Shown here piece after piece: positions 3,955-13,545 of a stretch of DNA of 64,000 nucleotides. Position 1 is the first letter of the stretch; each line of letters starts with the position of its first letter. This DNA comes from Blattamonas nauphoetae. Its lineage: Eukaryota > Preaxostyla > Oxymonadida. The notes below the pieces were generated by a model, which saw only the letters and a list, made by a program, of their open reading frames with translations, had not been told where the DNA came from and made no database searches. Made by a program: the position numbers and the translations under genes. Location of the stretch: positions 186,001 through 250,000 of the forward strand of contig JARBJD010000011.1 of the NCBI GenBank assembly GCA_033064195.1. The letters run 5' to 3'.

Positions 3955-5293
3955 ATCATTTCATTCTTGAATTTTGGGAAACATTCCGATCACTTCCAAA
4001 CGACTCTGAGCCATCCAGATCACGTCCTGAGAATCAACTCTCATTCCGATCACATTCTCCCCATCACTGAACTTAAATCGACTCCAAACATTCAACGCAA
4101 TCATGCATCGGAACAATCAATCTTCAGCAATCATGCCTCAGATCTATCATGCACATAGCAGAACATCTGATCCGGACTGTATCACCATCGTGATATCTGT
4201 TCATGAACCAAGGAACAGACTGTTTAGTATCAATTCACATGAACAAACTAGGTCCAACTTTTTTTACATGAAATTGGTGATAGTCTATACGTGTTGTGAC
4301 AGAAGAGTCAACAGAACCACCTATTTCCATCCCCCACATCTACCAAAAACCCCTCAAATGGATTTTCTGAGCTTCAACAGTAAATGAATCTGTTTTCTGA
4401 GTTTTGCACGAGCTGTTTTTCCATCAATTCCATGCACCCGTCCAATCTACAAAAGTCAAACGTCCCGAAAAAAGTGAAAGAGAATCAAAATAGAATGGGT
4501 TCGATCAAACTGGTCCCTCTTTCTTGTTGACAGATTCGTCACGTCGCATTTCACTGAAGGCTCCAAGAATTGCCTTGTTGGTTTCATCGGATATTTTGTC
4601 ACATGTTCTTTCTTCGTTTAGTCTTTTCAAGGAAGCGATGTACACAATTGATCACGGAAGGAAGGCTGTATTCGCAAGTTTTGCAATGATACCGGATAAA
4701 GCCGGTCGCCAATTGAGGTTGAAGAGGGAATGGTTCGCCAGAGAATTGCGTAGTTGTGAGGAATGAAGTATACATCAATAAAGTTTGATTGTGTTGGGCA
4801 ATGGTCGAGGGTGCATGGAATTGATGGAAAAACAGCTCGTGCAAAACTCAGAAAACAGATTCATTTACTGTTGAAGCTCAGAAAATCCATTTGAGGGGTT
4901 TTTGGTAGATGTGGGGGATGGAAATAGGTGGTTCTGTTGACTCTTCTGTCACAACACGTATAGACTATCACCAATTTCATGTAAAAAAAGTTGGACCTAG
5001 TTTGTTCATGTGAATTGATACTAAACAGTCTGTTCCTTGGTTCATGAACAGATATCACGATGGTGATACAGTCCGGATCAGATGTTCTGCTATGTGCATG
5101 ATAGATCTGAGGCATGATTGCTGAAGATTGATTGTTCCGATGCATGATTGCGTTGAATGTTTGGAGTCGATTTAAGTTCAGTGATGGGGAGAATGTGATC
5201 GGAATGAGAGTTGATTCTCAGGACGTGATCTGGATGGCTCAGAGTCGTTTGGAAGTGATCGGAATGTAATCCAAAATACAATAATGAAATGGA
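3955..5293. repeat. Large inverted repeat with about 460-bp near-perfect arms
   Basis: Positions 3980-4439 are repeated in inverted orientation at 4809-5268. Paired coordinates sum to 9248 throughout, so there are no length differences between the arms. A 94-codon open stretch at 4103-4387 (+) reappears residue for residue at 4861-5145 (-). Homology continues with substitutions outward to about 3955 and 5293. The spacer (4440-4808) has an 80-codon open stretch of no known family. The outer right side runs into an hAT-like fragment. Identity this high implies recent duplication or gene conversion. Confidence 0.85.
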
Positions 5294-6803: not shown

Positions 6804-8153
6804 TCAAAACTCTCCATGTCTGAGTAGGTCCTCATACTCTTCTCGTTGAATGGGTGTCCTGAGTGGGACATTTTCTCCATGAATGACTGTTTTTGAACGA
6901 GCCTTTTCGGTTTTTCCATCTTCCGAGTTCTGATTCTCGTCAATCACATACAAGTCCATCAGTTGATGTGATTTGCGCATTCTTTTCGGTTTCTATTCCT
7001 CATTTTCTGCAGTTAGTTTGGTGCTTCTTGAACGCCGAATTGGTACGATTGGTTCATATTCAACTTCTTTGTATTCCCTATCCTGAAGGAGAAAATGAAA
7101 ATTTGGGAAACCATGATCTGCTTTTCATCTTTGAGTATCTGTTTGCACGATTTTTGTGTCAAGGCTGAAAATCGCTCTGTCCATTTCTTGATCTTCAGAG
7201 GAGAGGACCCTTGCCTTTTGGAAAGTATCTGTTCTTGCCACTTTTTGACTTCAAAGGTCTAGATCACCTTCATATGGTGATATTTCAGTTCGTTCCACTC
7301 TTGAATGTCGATCGAGACGGAGGTACTAGCATAAAGCTGTTTGTTGTCTATTCTAAAGCAGAGATACCTTGACACACCAACAAATTCGAGTTGGGGAACT
7401 TCAGCAGGGAAGGTTGGTTCAAGGTGGATGTAATCAATGGGTCTTGATGAGCGTGTAGCGTTCTCGTTTCTAAAATATGAAATAAAGTCTGAGATTGTTG
7501 TAAGTGTCGTTTCGGTGGGAGATTGTTTCAGAGTCCGAACCATCGCACCAAACTCCGCATCACAAATGTTCTTTCCGTGATGCTCAAAGTAGAAGAGGAC
7601 GGTTGTAGATACTGACGGATCAAGTGTTGGTAGATCTGATAGTAGATAACACAGGAGCTGTTTGTTTCGGAAATGAGGGCCACAATCGGAGACAGAAAAA
7701 ATCTTGTGGGCTTGATCAAAGAACGGATTTTCCATCAGAACCTCCAATGCTTCAATTTCGAACGCCACATGATGATTCAGAATCTCAGAGATAAAATGGA
7801 ACACTCGTTTGACTTCTTTTCCATCTTCATTCTTCGAAAATACCACAACCCCCAAATCTGTCAACTGCTGTTTGTTGAACCAGTCTTGCTGGGATTCATC
7901 TCCACCTGCTGGAATTATCCAGTTTTCTTTAAAGTCCGCGACCATCAAAAATTCACCTTTCACGAGGTTTGATGGCATTTTCTTGATCGCATTTCGTTGG
8001 ACTTCAGCTCCCACCAGATGTCGATCTAAAGCCAGTATCTCTTTCATTCTCTCTTCTTTCTTTGAATCATCATTAGCTCCAAGATGCTTCAGTTCCTTGT
8101 TTGCTTCTTGTAACCTCAAACAATCAGGACAAACGTCGCTCCTCTTCTTGGGG
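6804..8153 (-). pseudogene. DDE transposase, C-terminal half (split gene)
   Basis: Minus-strand coding begins at the insertion point of the 8154-12787 element with a Cys-Pro-Asp-Cys motif. It carries three acidic residues in DDE-like context: VADFKEN (about 7945), FSVSDCGPHFRN (about 7690) and YFEHHGKN (about 7590). I recall this DFKEN / SDCGPHFR / EHHGK pattern from DDE-type transposases but cannot name the superfamily. Coding potential continues past an in-frame TAG at 7259-7261, through a likely 29-nt intron (7083-7111), to a basic tail. A second in-frame TAG lies at 6993-6995. The matching N-terminal half is at 12798-13545. The gene is dead. Confidence 0.65.
8144..8153. repeat. 10-bp target site duplication, left copy
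   Basis: CTTCTTGGGG here is repeated at 12788-12797, immediately outside both ends of the 4.63-kb element. Removing the element and one copy rejoins the surrounding reading frame (lysine-lysine-arginine context followed by Cys-Pro-Asp-Cys). That confirms it as a true insertion duplication. Confidence 0.85.
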
Positions 8154-8168
8154 GGTGTCTCAATTTTC

Positions 8169-8315
8169 AGGGGAAAAACTCGAGCTCAGGGGAAAAACTC
8201 GATCACAGGGGAAGATCTCAATCACAGGGGAGAATCTCAATCACAGGGGAAAATCTCAATCACAGGGGAAAATCTCGGGCCACAGGGGAAGAATCTCAAG
8301 GACAAGGGGATTGAA
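8169..8315. repeat. Tandem repeat, about 19-bp unit, left arm
   Basis: About seven or eight units of the type CAGGGGAAAATCTCAATCA. The first units carry AACTCG variants and the last ones degenerate toward CAGGGGAAGAATCTCAAGG. The right arm (about 12630-12773) has one unit fewer. This shows change in unit number between arms since they were formed. Confidence 0.8.
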
Positions 8316-8583
8316 GGTGGATCAATTTTTGAACATGTGTGGATTAGGGAGTTAGAACGCGGGACTTTCAACCCTCGGTCCCGGGATCGAGGTTGGTCAT
8401 CGGCACTTTTTCTCGTTTTTGAAACATTTTTGTCAACGATCACAGATTCTCTCTCTTTTCAATCCGATTTTTTGTTTAAACTTTTCAGAAAGGCTCTGCG
8501 ATGAACAGAATGTTGCTGATGAGCGGGCAATCACGATCCTGCTTTTTTTCTCAAATTCAGACATTATTCTCCAAAATAACTTA

Positions 8584-9645
8584 TAGACATGGGACATAAT
8601 TCAATTTCGGGACATAATTCCCTCTTTGAGCGATCTATTGACAATTAAGGTCTAATATTTGTGAAAATAATTCGTGAACTGGTCTGTTCACGCCACAAAA
8701 GTCAACGGAAAGGAAAAATTGTCTTGAAGTGGAGAAAGGAGGATCAACGTCTGATCTTCCCACAATCAATGTGACAAAATCTCCGTTCTCCGAAAAAAGT
8801 CATATCCCAGTCCTTCTCACCTTCCACGTCTCAGATGACATGGCACAAACCTAATAACAAGAGTCCGAAAAAATTGAGAAACCCAATAATGGATGGGATC
8901 AAACATCCAAAATACCCCCTTGCCCGCTCAAAAATCCCCATTCAAGGATCCTGTCTTAAAGATTAACGCACTCACGGACAATGACCTGATGGTCACTGCA
9001 GTGCAATCCCGGTATGCTTTCCACCAATCAAAGCTCAATTCGCTCTTTTTATGGAATGCAATTGTTGCTTCATTTTTCTTGCATGGATCTGTCTCTCTCC
9101 TTCATCACTCATTCTCTTCCTCTTTTTCCTCATTTTTCAGTGTTTGTCGGTCAAACTTTATTGATTCAACAAATTAGACGAACAGTTTGGTCACTCCACC
9201 AATCAGTTCAGATCCAGCATATTTCCCGTGTTTTTCAGGTTTGCTCTCATTTTTATTCCTTACTTTTCATTCTCTTCACATTTTTAGGCAGATGCATGGA
9301 TTTCATGTTGTTAATACGATGATCCATGACACAGGAGGAGATCTCTGCAATAAGATGGCGGAGAAACGTCACTCAGACTTCGGTCATATCACTTGTATTT
9401 CACTACTGTTTGTATTGATGATTTTTTTGGGTAATGTGATGTAATGATCAGTTCTGAAAAATGGAGAGACCCATCATAAAGTGGAAAAAGGATCGAGAAT
9501 TTGGACCATCTCCAATTTAGTTCATACTTAGTGAGGATGTGTAATAGGCTCCCTACAACCTGTAATTCACTCTCCAACAGAAATTGATTCTTATTTAGGT
9601 AGAAAAGCGAATTATGTCTCCAAATTGTTTTGTGTCCCACATCTA
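8584..9645. mobile_element. PIF/Harbinger-type miniature element, copy 1 (nested)
   Basis: The ends are TAGACATGGGACATAATTC and the reverse complement of TAGATGTGGGACACAAAAC. A TTA duplication flanks the unit at 8581-8583 and 9646-9648. The empty site survives in the right arm of the host element near 12377-12384, which proves the insertion. The 1062-bp length and most of the interior match the copy at 49379-50436. A 3-bp TWA target duplication is characteristic of PIF/Harbinger. No transposase is encoded; small plus-strand open stretches have no recognisable domain. Confidence 0.85.
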
Positions 9646-10079
9646 TTAACATACAACATAATAGTGACATGTTTGATGCTTCTTCTTCATCTTTTCTCAT
9701 TGTCCATTCACCCATTCTCAAAACTTTCGCATTCGTTTTCCCACTCTCGATCAATCATCTTTCAGATCATCGCACATGGAAGAGACATTGTCGACTCAAT
9801 CTACTTCTCCAGCTCCTCACGTGCCTTCTTCGCCTGCTCCACTGACACAGCCACTTCCGACTGGCCTGTTGCGACACTGCTCTGTGCATCTCCTTCTTCC
9901 ATCGCTTTCAGATTCCTCTTTGTCTTTTCATGTATTGATGTGAATGTTGAGTGTTTGGTCGGGAAGAGTGACCAATGCGATCAGAGACGAATCGTGATCT
10001 TCTTCGCTTGTCGGATCACTCCCCAAAGCTCGTCCAGCTCTTTCCGCTTCTCCTTGTTCCCCACACACCCTCCCACACA

Positions 10080-11750
10080 TCACTCATAGTCTCCGAGCAG
10101 ACTGTAGCTGTATTGATCCAGCTCGTCTCTGTTATCCTCGTTGTGTGTGGCCTGCACATCGCTTCGGATCATCAGTAACTCCTCATTACCCCAGCGCTGA
10201 TGGAGCGAGGGAGTTGGTTGAGATGGGGCGGGAGGGAGACAAGTACGAGCTGTATTGGACGAGGGAGGATGTGGAGGGGGTAAGGTGGAGAAGGGCCGTG
10301 TGGAGGGGAGAGAGGAATGATGGAGGACGGGCGGCGACACAGACGGTAGTGGAGTGGGATGTGAGATGGGTGTTCGTCCGAAGTTGGGGGTTGTGCCTCT
10401 TTCGCTCTTTTCTCCTGTTCGTTTGTCTCCTCTGCCACTTTGTTCAATTCTTGCTCCTTCCTCTCCTCTCTCAGCCGCTCCTCCTCTTCCTTCGCCTCTG
10501 TCTCCTTCCGCCTCTCTTCTTCTTCCTCGTCCACTTCTGGCAGCCCGCCCATCCCAATCCAGTCCATCATTCCGGCACACGACCTCTCCATCAGCTCGTT
10601 CTCTGCTCCGATCTCTTCCAGCATGTTCGTCTTGTGAAGCATGAACACTTCGTTGGCATCGACTTCGGCAACAATGCTAGCCAAGTCGGTGAGAGGCGAA
10701 GAGTTGAGCAGGACAGCCGAGATGCAAGTTTGCGAGATGAACTGTGGCTGTGTTCGTGCTTCCACCAAAATCTGGACTGTATCCTCTCTTTTCCGCTCCT
10801 CTTCACTTCATCTGAGCATCTCTCCCACTCTCTCCTGTATATCAATCCGAATCGTTCCCATCCGCTGGTTCGAGAATGGATTCGCGTTGAGTGAAAATTG
10901 GCGAAAGAGAGTCTTTGTGTCGCCCTGCTCTTCCACGATAATCTCAAACACACACGCCATCCCTTCCTCGTCCTCCCTACTGCAGAACGCAACATGATCG
11001 TTGTCCCACGGTTCGTGCACAGAAGAGCACACTGGAATCATCCAATCACTGTGCATACGCTCCCCTCCCTCCCCTTGCCCTCCTCCCCCAACATCCCTCC
11101 CGCTTGTCCGTCCTTCTTCTTCCATGTCTTCACACTGTGCAAACCGGCCAGCGCCTTTTTCATCAGAAGCGTATTCCTTATGTCCTCCTCTTTCATCCTC
11201 TTCTCGGATGCCACCATCACGTCCCGCACAAACACATACCACGATGTATACGCAACCAGGTCGCTTGTCGGCTCGTCCAGCAGAAGCAGACCGGGGCTGT
11301 TGGCCAATGCTCGTGCGATGGTGCTGAGAGGAGTGAAGAGAAGGGGAAGAGGTGAATGAAAAGGAAAAGAAACCGGAAGGTGTGAAAGAGAGAGAGGGTG
11401 GGAAAGTCAAACAGTGTATATACACTCGCTGCTGCTCGCCGCAGGACAGCATCAACGGGTAGTGCGTCAGTCGGCAGCTCCACATTCTCCAGTGCTGTCA
11501 TCGATCTCAGAGTGTTGAAGGTTTGGACTGGTGTTGATATTCCTTCTGCAGCTCGCCCTCCTCACCGCATTCACTCCACAGTCGCTCCCTCTCTCAAATC
11601 ACCACCTTCTGCTGGAATTTCCTCCTCAACCTTTGTGGTTGCCTTTTCCGGGAGCAACTCAGAGAATTTTGGCGGTGGTCTTTCAGATTCTTTAACAGAA
11701 GGTGTGAATTAAAGCATTGAACATCACTCTGAGGAGATCTGCGACGACTG
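10080..11750 (-). pseudogene. Captured fragment of an ABC-transporter ATPase gene
   Basis: On the minus strand, pieces of one ABC ATPase appear in order: VQTFNTLRSMTALENVELP (Q-loop region typical of LolD/MacB-type ATPases), then LMLSCGEQQRV (signature motif, second Gly replaced by Cys). After a 100-nt GT-AG intron (11324-11423) comes ARALANSPGLLLLDEPTSDL (Walker B). The segment between the Q-loop and the signature motif is shortened and out of frame. No Walker A was found. A charged coiled-coil-like tail continues to about 10170. Retention of an intron points to capture of genomic DNA rather than mRNA. Not expected to make a working transporter. Confidence 0.65.
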
Positions 11751-12272
11751 GCCGGTTCTTGATCTGGCAGACATTAGCAACGAGAAGCATACAATTCACT
11801 TTTCAGGATTGTTGTCGAAGGTTGGTACTGGCTTTTTCAGTGTTCATTTCACATGTTATTAAAGTCGGATTGTGTCTGTGACTTAGCTGCATTCGACATG
11901 CAAATCAGCTTCAAATAATGAAGTATAAACTGTCAAACATACATGATGATGGGTAGGTCAGCATTTCAAAATGAACTTCTCCAATCTTGAAGAGATCTCT
12001 GCATGCAACCGATCAGCCTGAAAGCGTCAATGCATTCGTCCTGCTCTGGCACGACACACATAAAGCAAAAGAAGATTAGACGATGAAGGGTGGAAGTGGA
12101 TCAAATACTTGAGATTTGGACGGAAGAGAACAACAGGGTAGGGACATGAAAAAAGAGTTCATACAGGACGAGAACCACCCAACAGATATATACATTTCGG
12201 CGAAAAGAGATCGGGATGTGTGTGATCGAGAATATGAGAGAGATGAGAAAGTTCTTTCGTTGGTTCATAACA

Positions 12273-12787
12273 GATCGAGAGTGGGAAAACGAATGCGAAA
12301 GTTTTGAGAATGGGTGAATGGACAATGAGAAAAGATGAAGAAGAAGCATCAAACATGTCATTATTATGTTGTATGTTAAGTTATTTTGGAGAATAATGTC
12401 TGAATTTGAGAAAAAAAGTAGGATCGTGATTGCCCGCTCATCAGCAACATTCTGTTCATCGCAGAGCCTTTCTGAAAAGTTTAAACAAAAAATCGGATTG
12501 AAAAGAGAGAGAATCTGTGATCGTTGACAAAAATGTTTCAAAAACGAGAAAAAGTGCCGATGACCAACCTCGATCCCGGGACCGAGGGTTGAAAGTCCCG
12601 CGTTCTAACTCCCTAATCCACACATGTTCAAAAATTGATCCACCTTCAATCCCCTTGTCCTTGAGATTCTTCCCCTGTGGCCCGAGATTTTCCCCTGTGA
12701 TTGAGATTTTCCCCTGTGATTGAGATTCTCCCCTGTGATTGAGATCTTCCCCTGAGCTCGAGTTTTTCCCCTGAAAATTGAGGTACC
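12273..12787. repeat. Right terminal inverted repeat of the 4.63-kb element
   Basis: This 515-bp arm is the inverted match of 8154-8583 plus 9646-9752. It includes the tandem 19-bp units at its outer end. It preserves the uninterrupted site where the left arm received the Harbinger-type insertion. Confidence 0.85.
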
Positions 12788-12797
12788 CTTCTTGGGG
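12788..12797. repeat. 10-bp target site duplication, right copy
   Basis: CTTCTTGGGG, matching 8144-8153. It belongs to the reading frame of the interrupted transposase. Confidence 0.85.
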
Positions 12798-13545
12798 TAC
12801 TTGATCCTTTTCGTCATGTTGTAGAAGGTGCTGTATAACATTGTTAGTTTTGTTTCTTTGATCATCTTTGTCCACAGAACAGATTTTATCTTGGTTAGAA
12901 CTCGTCCATACATCCAAGAATCCGCTGAAGAGATCGATTGTGTTTGATTCGTGCAGCTCTCAGTGGAGTTGTTAAGTAAGAAAGTTTTGAATAACTCTAG
13001 CTCCTCCTTGGACATTTCGGATTTTGATGGTGGTGGACGGGTTTTTTTTCTCTCTTTTGTGTAGACTTTTTTTAAAGTGTCTTTTGCCTTCATTGAACCG
13101 ACTTCTGGATTGTCCGTACCCATTATCACTAATTGTTTGATATCTGAAGTGTGTGCCAAGCACAGATTCGACATCAATAGCTTGGATTCGCGGCTTTTTG
13201 CAGATGTCCAGAAGATCCTTCAGTAAATTTTTCTCTTTCTCTAAATTTTTGTAGGATTTTTCAGTGATTTCACAAATCGGTGCAAACCATTCTGGACCTC
13301 CTTGATCCTTTTCAAAACATCTGGACACCAGCACGACTTTGTGATGAGGTGAAAGATTAAGTCGCACGGATCAGTCTCCCTGATTTTCTTGATGGCTTCG
13401 AATGCGCTTTTTGTCAAACGACTTCTTCTGACTTTCCCAATGTCGCAAAGCTGCTCAGTCATTGTTGGTATTACCATTGTTGGAAACCATCCCCAATATT
13501 GCACATCCATCCCCACTTGGTTCGCTCCAAAACTGGATACTTGAA
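12798..13545 (-). pseudogene. DDE transposase, N-terminal half (split gene)
   Basis: Minus-strand coding can be followed from about 13545 to the insertion duplication at 12797. It changes frame at least twice (near 13310 and near 13130), so the copy is degenerate. The peptide is rich in Lys, Glu and Ser with no named domain. It ends KRIKYPKK and is continued by RSDVCPDC at 8153. Together the halves would make a transposase of more than 500 residues. The start is not identified; a stop lies just upstream of 13545 in this frame. Confidence 0.55.

What the first reader, a model, noticed from the sequence alone, without database searches (positions are those of the whole stretch)
9753..12272. Gene capture: ABC-transporter pieces, intron included, inside a TIR element
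The interior of the long-TIR element carries Q-loop, signature and Walker B segments of an ABC ATPase with a 100-nt intron kept between signature and Walker B. This is the hallmark of DNA-level capture (Pack-MULE style), which is poorly documented in protists. The missing transposase means a partner element must move it.
Basis: partly seen in the sequence, partly recalled or inferred. Interest (0 to 1): 0.75.

Follow-up and report, generated by a model that had tools for sequence, protein, structure and literature searches.

The report
Mutator transposon carrying stolen gene pieces
A Mutator-type jumping gene in an oxymonad protist (probably Blattamonas nauphoetae) carries copied pieces of two host genes, one still with its intron; likely donor genes, sister elements with other contents, and a larger element that encodes the needed enzyme are in the same genome.

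Summary
The element spans 8154-12788 between 9-bp target duplications (TTCTTGGGG); a 1062-bp element is nested in its left TIR. Other copies occupy about 15 further sites, with an exact 9-bp duplication in 13 of 13 other copies where both tips were found. The cargo is a chimera: pieces of an ABC ATPase gene (donor-like genes C412 and C29, 81-87% identical, intron at the same codon, 100 nt versus 104/122) inside pieces of an Hsp70/BiP-like gene (C434, 71-89%). Related TIRs enclose other cargo, including one further host-gene piece (C445, 93%). No PF10551 (MULE transposase) match lies in 37 tip-paired short elements, but a 10.6-kb element (C393) with related TIRs, the tip motif and a 9-bp duplication encloses an open MULE transposase frame; four more pairs do so by coordinates. 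This is a Pack-MULE system with a candidate autonomous partner. The cargo is decayed (stops, frameshifts). New member of a known kind, in a lineage where my limited searches found no report.

The parts
8145..8153 (.). left 9-bp target-site duplication TTCTTGGGG
   Evidence: matches 12789-12797 (flanks printed); the first G of the usual GGGTGTCTC tip is then counted as target, and without that shift the scan scored the window as a mismatch
8154..8583 (.). left TIR, outer part, with 19-bp minisatellite units near the tip
   Evidence: 8186-8583 is 99% complementary to 12377-12774; tip shared with the other copies
8584..9645 (.). nested 1062-bp element with its own ~44-bp TIRs and apparent TTA duplication (not part of the capture)
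   Evidence: absent at this point from the other copies shown
9789..10857 (-). captured Hsp70/BiP-like gene pieces, 3' part (element positions 144-1212), with deletions and stops; its last 39 bp also align to ABC
   Evidence: 71-89% DNA identity to a >=1000-aa open frame on C434; BiP similarity of that frame E 3.4e-7
10819..11527 (-). captured ABC ATPase gene pieces (Q-loop, signature, Walker B, C-terminal extension) lacking 80, 96 and 117 bp of the donor sequence
   Evidence: 81-87% identity to C412 and C29
11324..11423 (-). retained intron, 100 nt, GT...AG
   Evidence: same codon position as in C412 (104 nt) and C29 (122 nt)
11523..11658 (-). captured Hsp70/BiP-like gene piece, 5' part
   Evidence: 80-85% identity to C434 (outer limit carried over from the copy L020)
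11659..12272 (.). interior sequence of unknown origin
   Evidence: search with 11600-12280 matched only copies of this family
12273..12379 (.). right TIR, inner part
12380..12788 (.). right TIR, outer part with 19-bp minisatellite, ending CCCCTGAAAATTGAGGTACCC
12789..12797 (.). right 9-bp target-site duplication TTCTTGGGG

Best explanation
A multi-copy, non-autonomous Mutator-like element (Pack-MULE) that acquired host genomic DNA, not cDNA: first a stretch of an Hsp70/BiP-like gene, then (order inferred) a stretch of an ABC ATPase gene that replaced about 190 bp inside it, probably by microhomology-guided gap filling or template switching during repair of the element. It then spread, making a 9-bp target duplication each time, presumably with transposase made in trans by the 10-14-kb MULEs of the same TIR clan. 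Shown here: TIRs, target duplications, donor-like genes, retained intron, chimeric order, other cargos, and a candidate autonomous partner. Inferred: the repair mechanism, the order of the two captures, trans-mobilisation.
For: Copies: 18 fetched loci besides the window carry the core; 14 full-length cores are 98.0-100% identical in pairs; contigs sharing an insertion counted once (by eye) leave about 16 sites. Exact 9-bp duplications in 13 of 13 other copies with both tips found, and in the window after a one-G shift. Donors: the C412/C29 ABC gene has Walker A (split by an intron), Q-loop, LSGGEQQRV, DEPTGDLD and THD, and the same intron site; the C434 Hsp-like frame runs 1000 aa without a stop through the 3-kb stretch. 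No TIR of this clan by BLAST in the donor stretches L049, L050, L051. Both donor joins fall in short shared sequence (TCCAA; CGAT; read by eye). Other cargo between related TIRs: about 450 bp 93% identical to C445, inside a >=699-aa frame, and family C. The tip pattern gives 158 hits, reversed control 0; the 100 listed hits form 37 pairs: 14 this family, 5 B, 9 C, 9 unassigned at that step. Partner: the C393 element has tips at both ends, TIRs 92% alike over 248 bp and 79-84% to those of the window family in the main aligned pieces, ATCCTTTCA on both sides, and encloses a PF10551 match in a 646-aa open frame; C21, C288, C151 and C212 also enclose one by coordinates.
Against: No expression or transposition data. 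The C393 TIRs are only 79-84% like those of the window family, so this family may use another transposase. Cargo and donors are 71-89% identical, so the true donor may be a lost or unsampled paralog. Donor flanks were read for only a few hundred bases in places. 614 bp of the interior has no source. C220 and C447 hold ABC/Hsp junction pieces without these TIRs, which I cannot fully explain.
Confidence: 0.93

Rival explanations
1. The ABC/Hsp chimera was a host pseudogene or fused gene first, and the TIRs arose around it or it was carried off whole as one piece.
For: C220 has an ABC 3' piece next to an Hsp 3' piece, and C447 holds a 341-bp piece with the junction, neither with these TIRs in 4.6 and 3.8 kb.
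Against: The same TIR clan encloses other, unrelated interiors; C447 is 97% like the element, so it is better read as derived from it; C220 joins other Hsp positions and has no long frame across them; the two donors are separate on C412/C29 and C434.
Confidence: 0.04
2. The ABC pieces came from a spliced transcript (retrocopy), as in retrotransposon-mediated capture.
For: None found.
Against: The intron is kept at the donor position. One possible spliced-cargo case in family C was checked and its gaps do not look like introns.
Confidence: 0.01
3. The cargo is a working chimeric gene of the element, kept by selection.
For: The ABC-to-Hsp join is in frame; two of three ABC deletions are multiples of 3 (96, 117 bp); element-donor dN/dS is 0.19-0.50 in seven blocks.
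Against: The third ABC deletion (80 bp) shifts the frame between Q-loop and signature; 4-bp (ABC) and 25-, 5- and 80-bp (Hsp) deletions shift it again; stops in donor frame in 4 of 7 blocks; out-of-frame 5' join; no Walker A. A dN/dS below 1 is expected from constraint on the donor alone.
Confidence: 0.02

Closest known systems
Pack-MULEs of plants (rice, maize, tomato, Arabidopsis)
   Same: Non-autonomous MULEs with long TIRs and 9-11-bp target duplications that carry host gene fragments, mobilised by a transposase given in trans (passages of PMC3310237 and PMC6431247). Retained introns as a mark of DNA-level capture: recalled.
   Different: Host is an oxymonad protist; the TIR tips are minisatellite arrays of 19-bp units; the TIR-matched transposase carriers found here are 10-14 kb.
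Pack-TIRs of animals
   Same: Host DNA captured between TIRs, microhomology at joins, multi-copy cases explained by template switching followed by transposition (abstract and passages of PMC8277862).
   Different: Those are mostly single-copy and attributed to gap filling without transposition; this family transposed repeatedly.
Rehavkus/Foldback-type Mutator relatives
   Same: Minisatellite repeats in the TIR and 9-bp target duplications (recalled; one search showed only that Rehavkus is discussed beside MULEs).
   Different: The candidate partner carries a standard PF10551 MULE transposase; its phylogenetic place was not tested.
TvMULEs (Trichomonas) and EMULE-Ei1 (Entamoeba)
   Same: Protist Mutator-like elements; EMULE-Ei1 has 187-bp TIRs and a 9-bp duplication (passages of PMC2725143).
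   Different: Described there as transposase-bearing elements; the passages I saw report no captured host gene fragments in them.

Membership tests
Mutator-like element (MULE) | long TIRs (100 bp or more) | tested here: met
   463-554-bp inverted repeats in 15 of 15 copies other than the window with both ends fetched; the window's left TIR is split by a nested element
Mutator-like element (MULE) | 9-11-bp target-site duplication | tested here: met
   13 of 13 other copies with both tips found; window exact after a one-G shift; C65 and C272 gave no left tip in the same scan; C699, C236, C439 were not given to it. Also 4 of 4 other-interior elements with both tips and C393
Mutator-like element (MULE) | MULE transposase (PF10551) in an autonomous member of the same TIR clan | tested here: met
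   C393 read at both ends with PF10551 in a 646-aa frame inside; C21, C288, C151, C212 by coordinates only. TIR identity to the window family 79-84%
Pack-MULE | no transposase in the element | tested here: met
   none of the 100 PF10551 places lies inside any of the 37 tip pairs made from the 100 listed tips; a badly decayed transposase would be missed
Pack-MULE | cargo derived from host genes that exist elsewhere without the TIRs | tested here: met
   C412, C29, C434; TIR BLAST negative in the 2.6-3.0 kb fetched around each
Pack-MULE | DNA-level capture (intron retained) | tested here: met
   intron at the same codon, 100 vs 104/122 nt
Pack-MULE | mobilised in trans by the MULE transposase | not testable with these tools
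   only TIR and tip similarity
Rehavkus/Foldback | transposase of the Rehavkus branch | not tested
   no phylogeny of the transposases was made

The most novel reading that the evidence does not exclude
This clan is a capture machine in an oxymonad: short families grew by repeated microhomology-led filling-in from host genes, sampling the same Hsp-like gene at different times (dS to donor 0.13 in one block, 0.28-0.64 in the other four; blocks are short), nesting one donor's exons and intron inside another's, and leaving pieces in the genome (C447, C535, perhaps C220) as raw material for new chimeric genes.
Probability: 0.3. Interest if true: 0.65.

Novelty: new member of a known kind. Interest (0 to 1): 0.56.

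Why it matters
Pack-MULEs are known chiefly from plants, with related captures in animals. Here the parts of such a system lie in one protist genome: donor-like genes, two-gene chimeric cargo with intron, sister families with other interiors, exact 9-bp duplications, and a TIR-matched transposase carrier. My searches found no report in oxymonads, but they cover only an open-licence library and several listings were capped. It suggests that DNA-level exon shuffling by Mutator elements is not special to plants, and it offers a compact genome in which capture steps can be reconstructed.

Tried and rejected
TTAA-ended element (piggyBac or Kolobok type): the arm ends look like TTAA, but in 15 of 15 other copies with both ends fetched the inverted repeat continues outward, with 9-bp duplications at the outer tips. 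The window's 8186-8626 stretch as an empty site: rejected, it is the outer left TIR plus part of a nested element. Autonomous copies at C83 and C778 (7.4-7.5 kb core): rejected; they are interrupted by two different 4.67-kb insertions, and the one in C83 reads as a reverse-transcriptase plus tyrosine-recombinase retroelement (by eye). MULE loci C68, C823, C55 as partner: no matching TIR in the 4.4 kb fetched of each. Spliced cargo in family C: gaps do not look like introns. In-frame deletions as a sign of selection: a first estimate of 81 bp for the Q-loop/signature deletion was wrong; it is 80 bp and shifts the frame. Protein search with the Hsp-like frame: no hit; Pfam gave no Hsp70 match, so the name rests on BiP similarity. 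PDB search with the element's Q-loop frame: no hit.

Full report
Source. The window is G000:C13:186001-250000 of an 88.31-Mb, 837-contig genome. A MULE transposase frame from this genome (L062, C55) matches a Blattamonas nauphoetae protein at 99% identity over 97%, and the published assembly of that oxymonad is 88.54 Mb in 879 contigs (passages of PMC10703272). I take it to be B. nauphoetae.

The element. In the 15 other copies with both ends fetched the inverted repeat runs unbroken for 463-554 bp. In the window copy the left TIR is split by a 1062-bp nested element (8584-9645) with its own TIRs and an apparent TTA duplication. The tips read GGGTGTCTCAATTTTCAGGGG (left) and GGGTACCTCAATTTTCAGGGG (right, reverse strand) and run into 19-bp minisatellite units that vary in number. 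The window element is 8154-12788, flanked by TTCTTGGGG on both sides; this counts one G of the usual GGG tip as target.

Copies and target duplications. Besides the window, 18 fetched loci carry the core. Of these, C272 and C699 share outer flanks with C378, and C236 and C439 look like two halves of one insertion (shared TTGTCAGAC at the tips), read by eye; about 16 independent sites remain. The 14 full-length cores compared are 98.0-100% identical in pairs. The duplication scan took 16 copies: 13 have both tips and an exact 9-bp duplication, all different; the window has both tips but was scored a mismatch before the one-G shift; C65 and C272 gave no left tip. C699, C236 and C439 were not given to it. 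In the C236/C439 copy the two tip types are swapped relative to the core. Five of the 14 full cores (window, C572, one C190 copy, C135, C267) lack 87 bp, and C83 too by its alignment; the breakpoint lies in a 9-bp repeat.

Cargo. The genome search with 10200-11800 found, beyond the copies, ABC loci C412 and C29 (with pieces on C220 and C158) and an Hsp-like locus C434. On the coding (minus) strand the order is Hsp 5' piece, ABC pieces, Hsp 3' pieces; ABC replaces about 190 bp of the Hsp gene. The ABC donor has Walker A (split by an intron), Q-loop, LSGGEQQRV, LLLLDEPTGDLD and THD; the element keeps the Q-loop, signature and Walker B only and lacks 80, 96 and 117 bp. The intron sits at the same codon: 100 nt in the element, 104 in C412, 122 in C29. 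C412 and C29 are 96.7% alike over 1.7 kb, dN/dS 0.14 in the Walker B exon. The Hsp donor is an open frame of 1000 aa running through the whole stretch read, similar to BiP (E 3.4e-7); Pfam gave no Hsp70 match. Element-donor dS is 0.13-0.64 and dN/dS 0.19-0.50 across seven blocks of 17-225 codons; 4 of 7 blocks have a stop in the donor frame. The cargo is decaying. 11659-12272 has no source outside this family.

Joins. Both changes of donor fall in short shared sequence (TCCAA at the Hsp-to-ABC join, CGAT at the ABC-to-Hsp join; read by eye). With colinear Hsp pieces on both sides, this suggests repair of a break inside an element that already held the Hsp stretch, by copying from the ABC gene. 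This is inference.

Sister elements. The tip pattern has 158 matches genome-wide with up to 3 mismatches, reversed control 0; 100 are listed. These give 37 tip pairs: 14 of this family, 5 B, 9 C, 9 unassigned; 26 listed tips stay unpaired. Family B carries about 450 bp that are 93% identical to C445, where an open frame of at least 699 aa covers them. Family C carries a coiled-coil sequence that is also multi-copy in the genome (best blocks 88-91%), so it may come from another repeat rather than from a single host gene. Family D (L057) has an interior found in 8 of the 9 unassigned pairs (all but C59) and, at 71%, inside the transposase-bearing C393 element: it looks like a relative of the autonomous elements, not a captured host gene. 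L055, L056, L057 and L058 have exact 9-bp duplications (by eye); L054 was fetched with its right tip only.

Partner. PF10551 has 100 matches in the genome; none lies inside the 37 pairs. Family D interior matches lie 4-12 kb from MULE loci on C393, C288, C212, C151 and C21. Reading both ends on C393 gave a 10.6-kb element: tips at both ends, TIRs 92% alike over 248 bp, 78-84% in the main aligned pieces to the TIRs of families A, C and D, ATCCTTTCA on both sides, enclosing the PF10551 match in a 646-aa frame. TIR places enclose a PF10551 match on C21, C288, C151 and C212 too, and lie on one side of it on C688, C734, C136 and C39; only C393 was read. Three other MULE loci (C68, C823, C55) showed no such TIR in 4.4 kb each.

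Loose ends. C447 and C535 hold a piece about 97% like the element; for C447 the donor junction is included. C220 holds ABC and Hsp 3' pieces in another arrangement. No TIR of this clan was found in 3.8 kb of C447 or 4.6 kb of C220; C535 was not fetched.

Literature. Passages of PMC6446971, PMC3310237, PMC6431247, PMC8277862, PMC12477816, PMC2725143, PMC8767320 and PMC10703272 were seen; other papers only as search listings. The genome paper's main text has no match for transpos, MULE or Mutator. Ectocarpus giant families are called analogous to Pack-MULEs. I found no report of host-gene capture by MULEs in an oxymonad in searches; of these, 42, 74, 76 and 82 listed only part of their hits (15 of 62, 20 of 4,130, 15 of 330, 40 of 170).

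Check. On rechecking, one number changed (the Q-loop/signature deletion is 80 bp, not 81) and family D was moved from captured cargo to relatives of the autonomous elements; neither changes the odds given.

Noticed in passing
window 8584-9645: Nested 1062-bp element with ~44-bp imperfect TIRs (TAGACATGGGACA...) and an apparent 3-bp TTA duplication, PIF/Harbinger-like by duplication length (recalled); longest stop-to-stop frame 110 aa.
   Followed up: partly
window 3957-5291: Inverted repeat with 483-bp arms, 99% complementary, only 369 bp apart: another foldback-like element; this clan's tip motif is not seen at the arm ends printed.
   Followed up: no
L013 1662-6328 (C83): 4.67-kb insertion inside a copy of this family, with reverse transcriptase/RNase H-like and tyrosine-recombinase-like frames (DIRS-like, by eye).
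   Followed up: partly
L022 (C236) and L026 (C439): Apparently two halves of one insertion on different contigs, with the two tip types swapped relative to the core, as if core and ends had been inverted (by eye).
   Followed up: partly
L018 (C378), L025 (C272), L016 (C699): Same insertion on three contigs by their flanks: redundant or haplotype contigs; C272 has many small deletions, perhaps unpolished sequence.
   Followed up: partly
window 8093-8153 and 12789-12850: The insertion site may lie in the coding sequence of a gene (minus strand...KRIKYPKK/RSDVCPDC..., by eye); the right flank has relatives at 72% on several contigs, and L027 has a similar frame (by eye).
   Followed up: partly
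L052 with L063/L064 (C220:37700-42300): Degenerate locus with ABC 3' and Hsp-like 3' pieces side by side in another arrangement, without these TIRs; origin unexplained.
   Followed up: partly
L027 3580-4125 (C17): Single TIR 78-80% like the window family's, inner part included; no second end within the 8 kb fetched and no match to the window cargo: a further family.
   Followed up: partly
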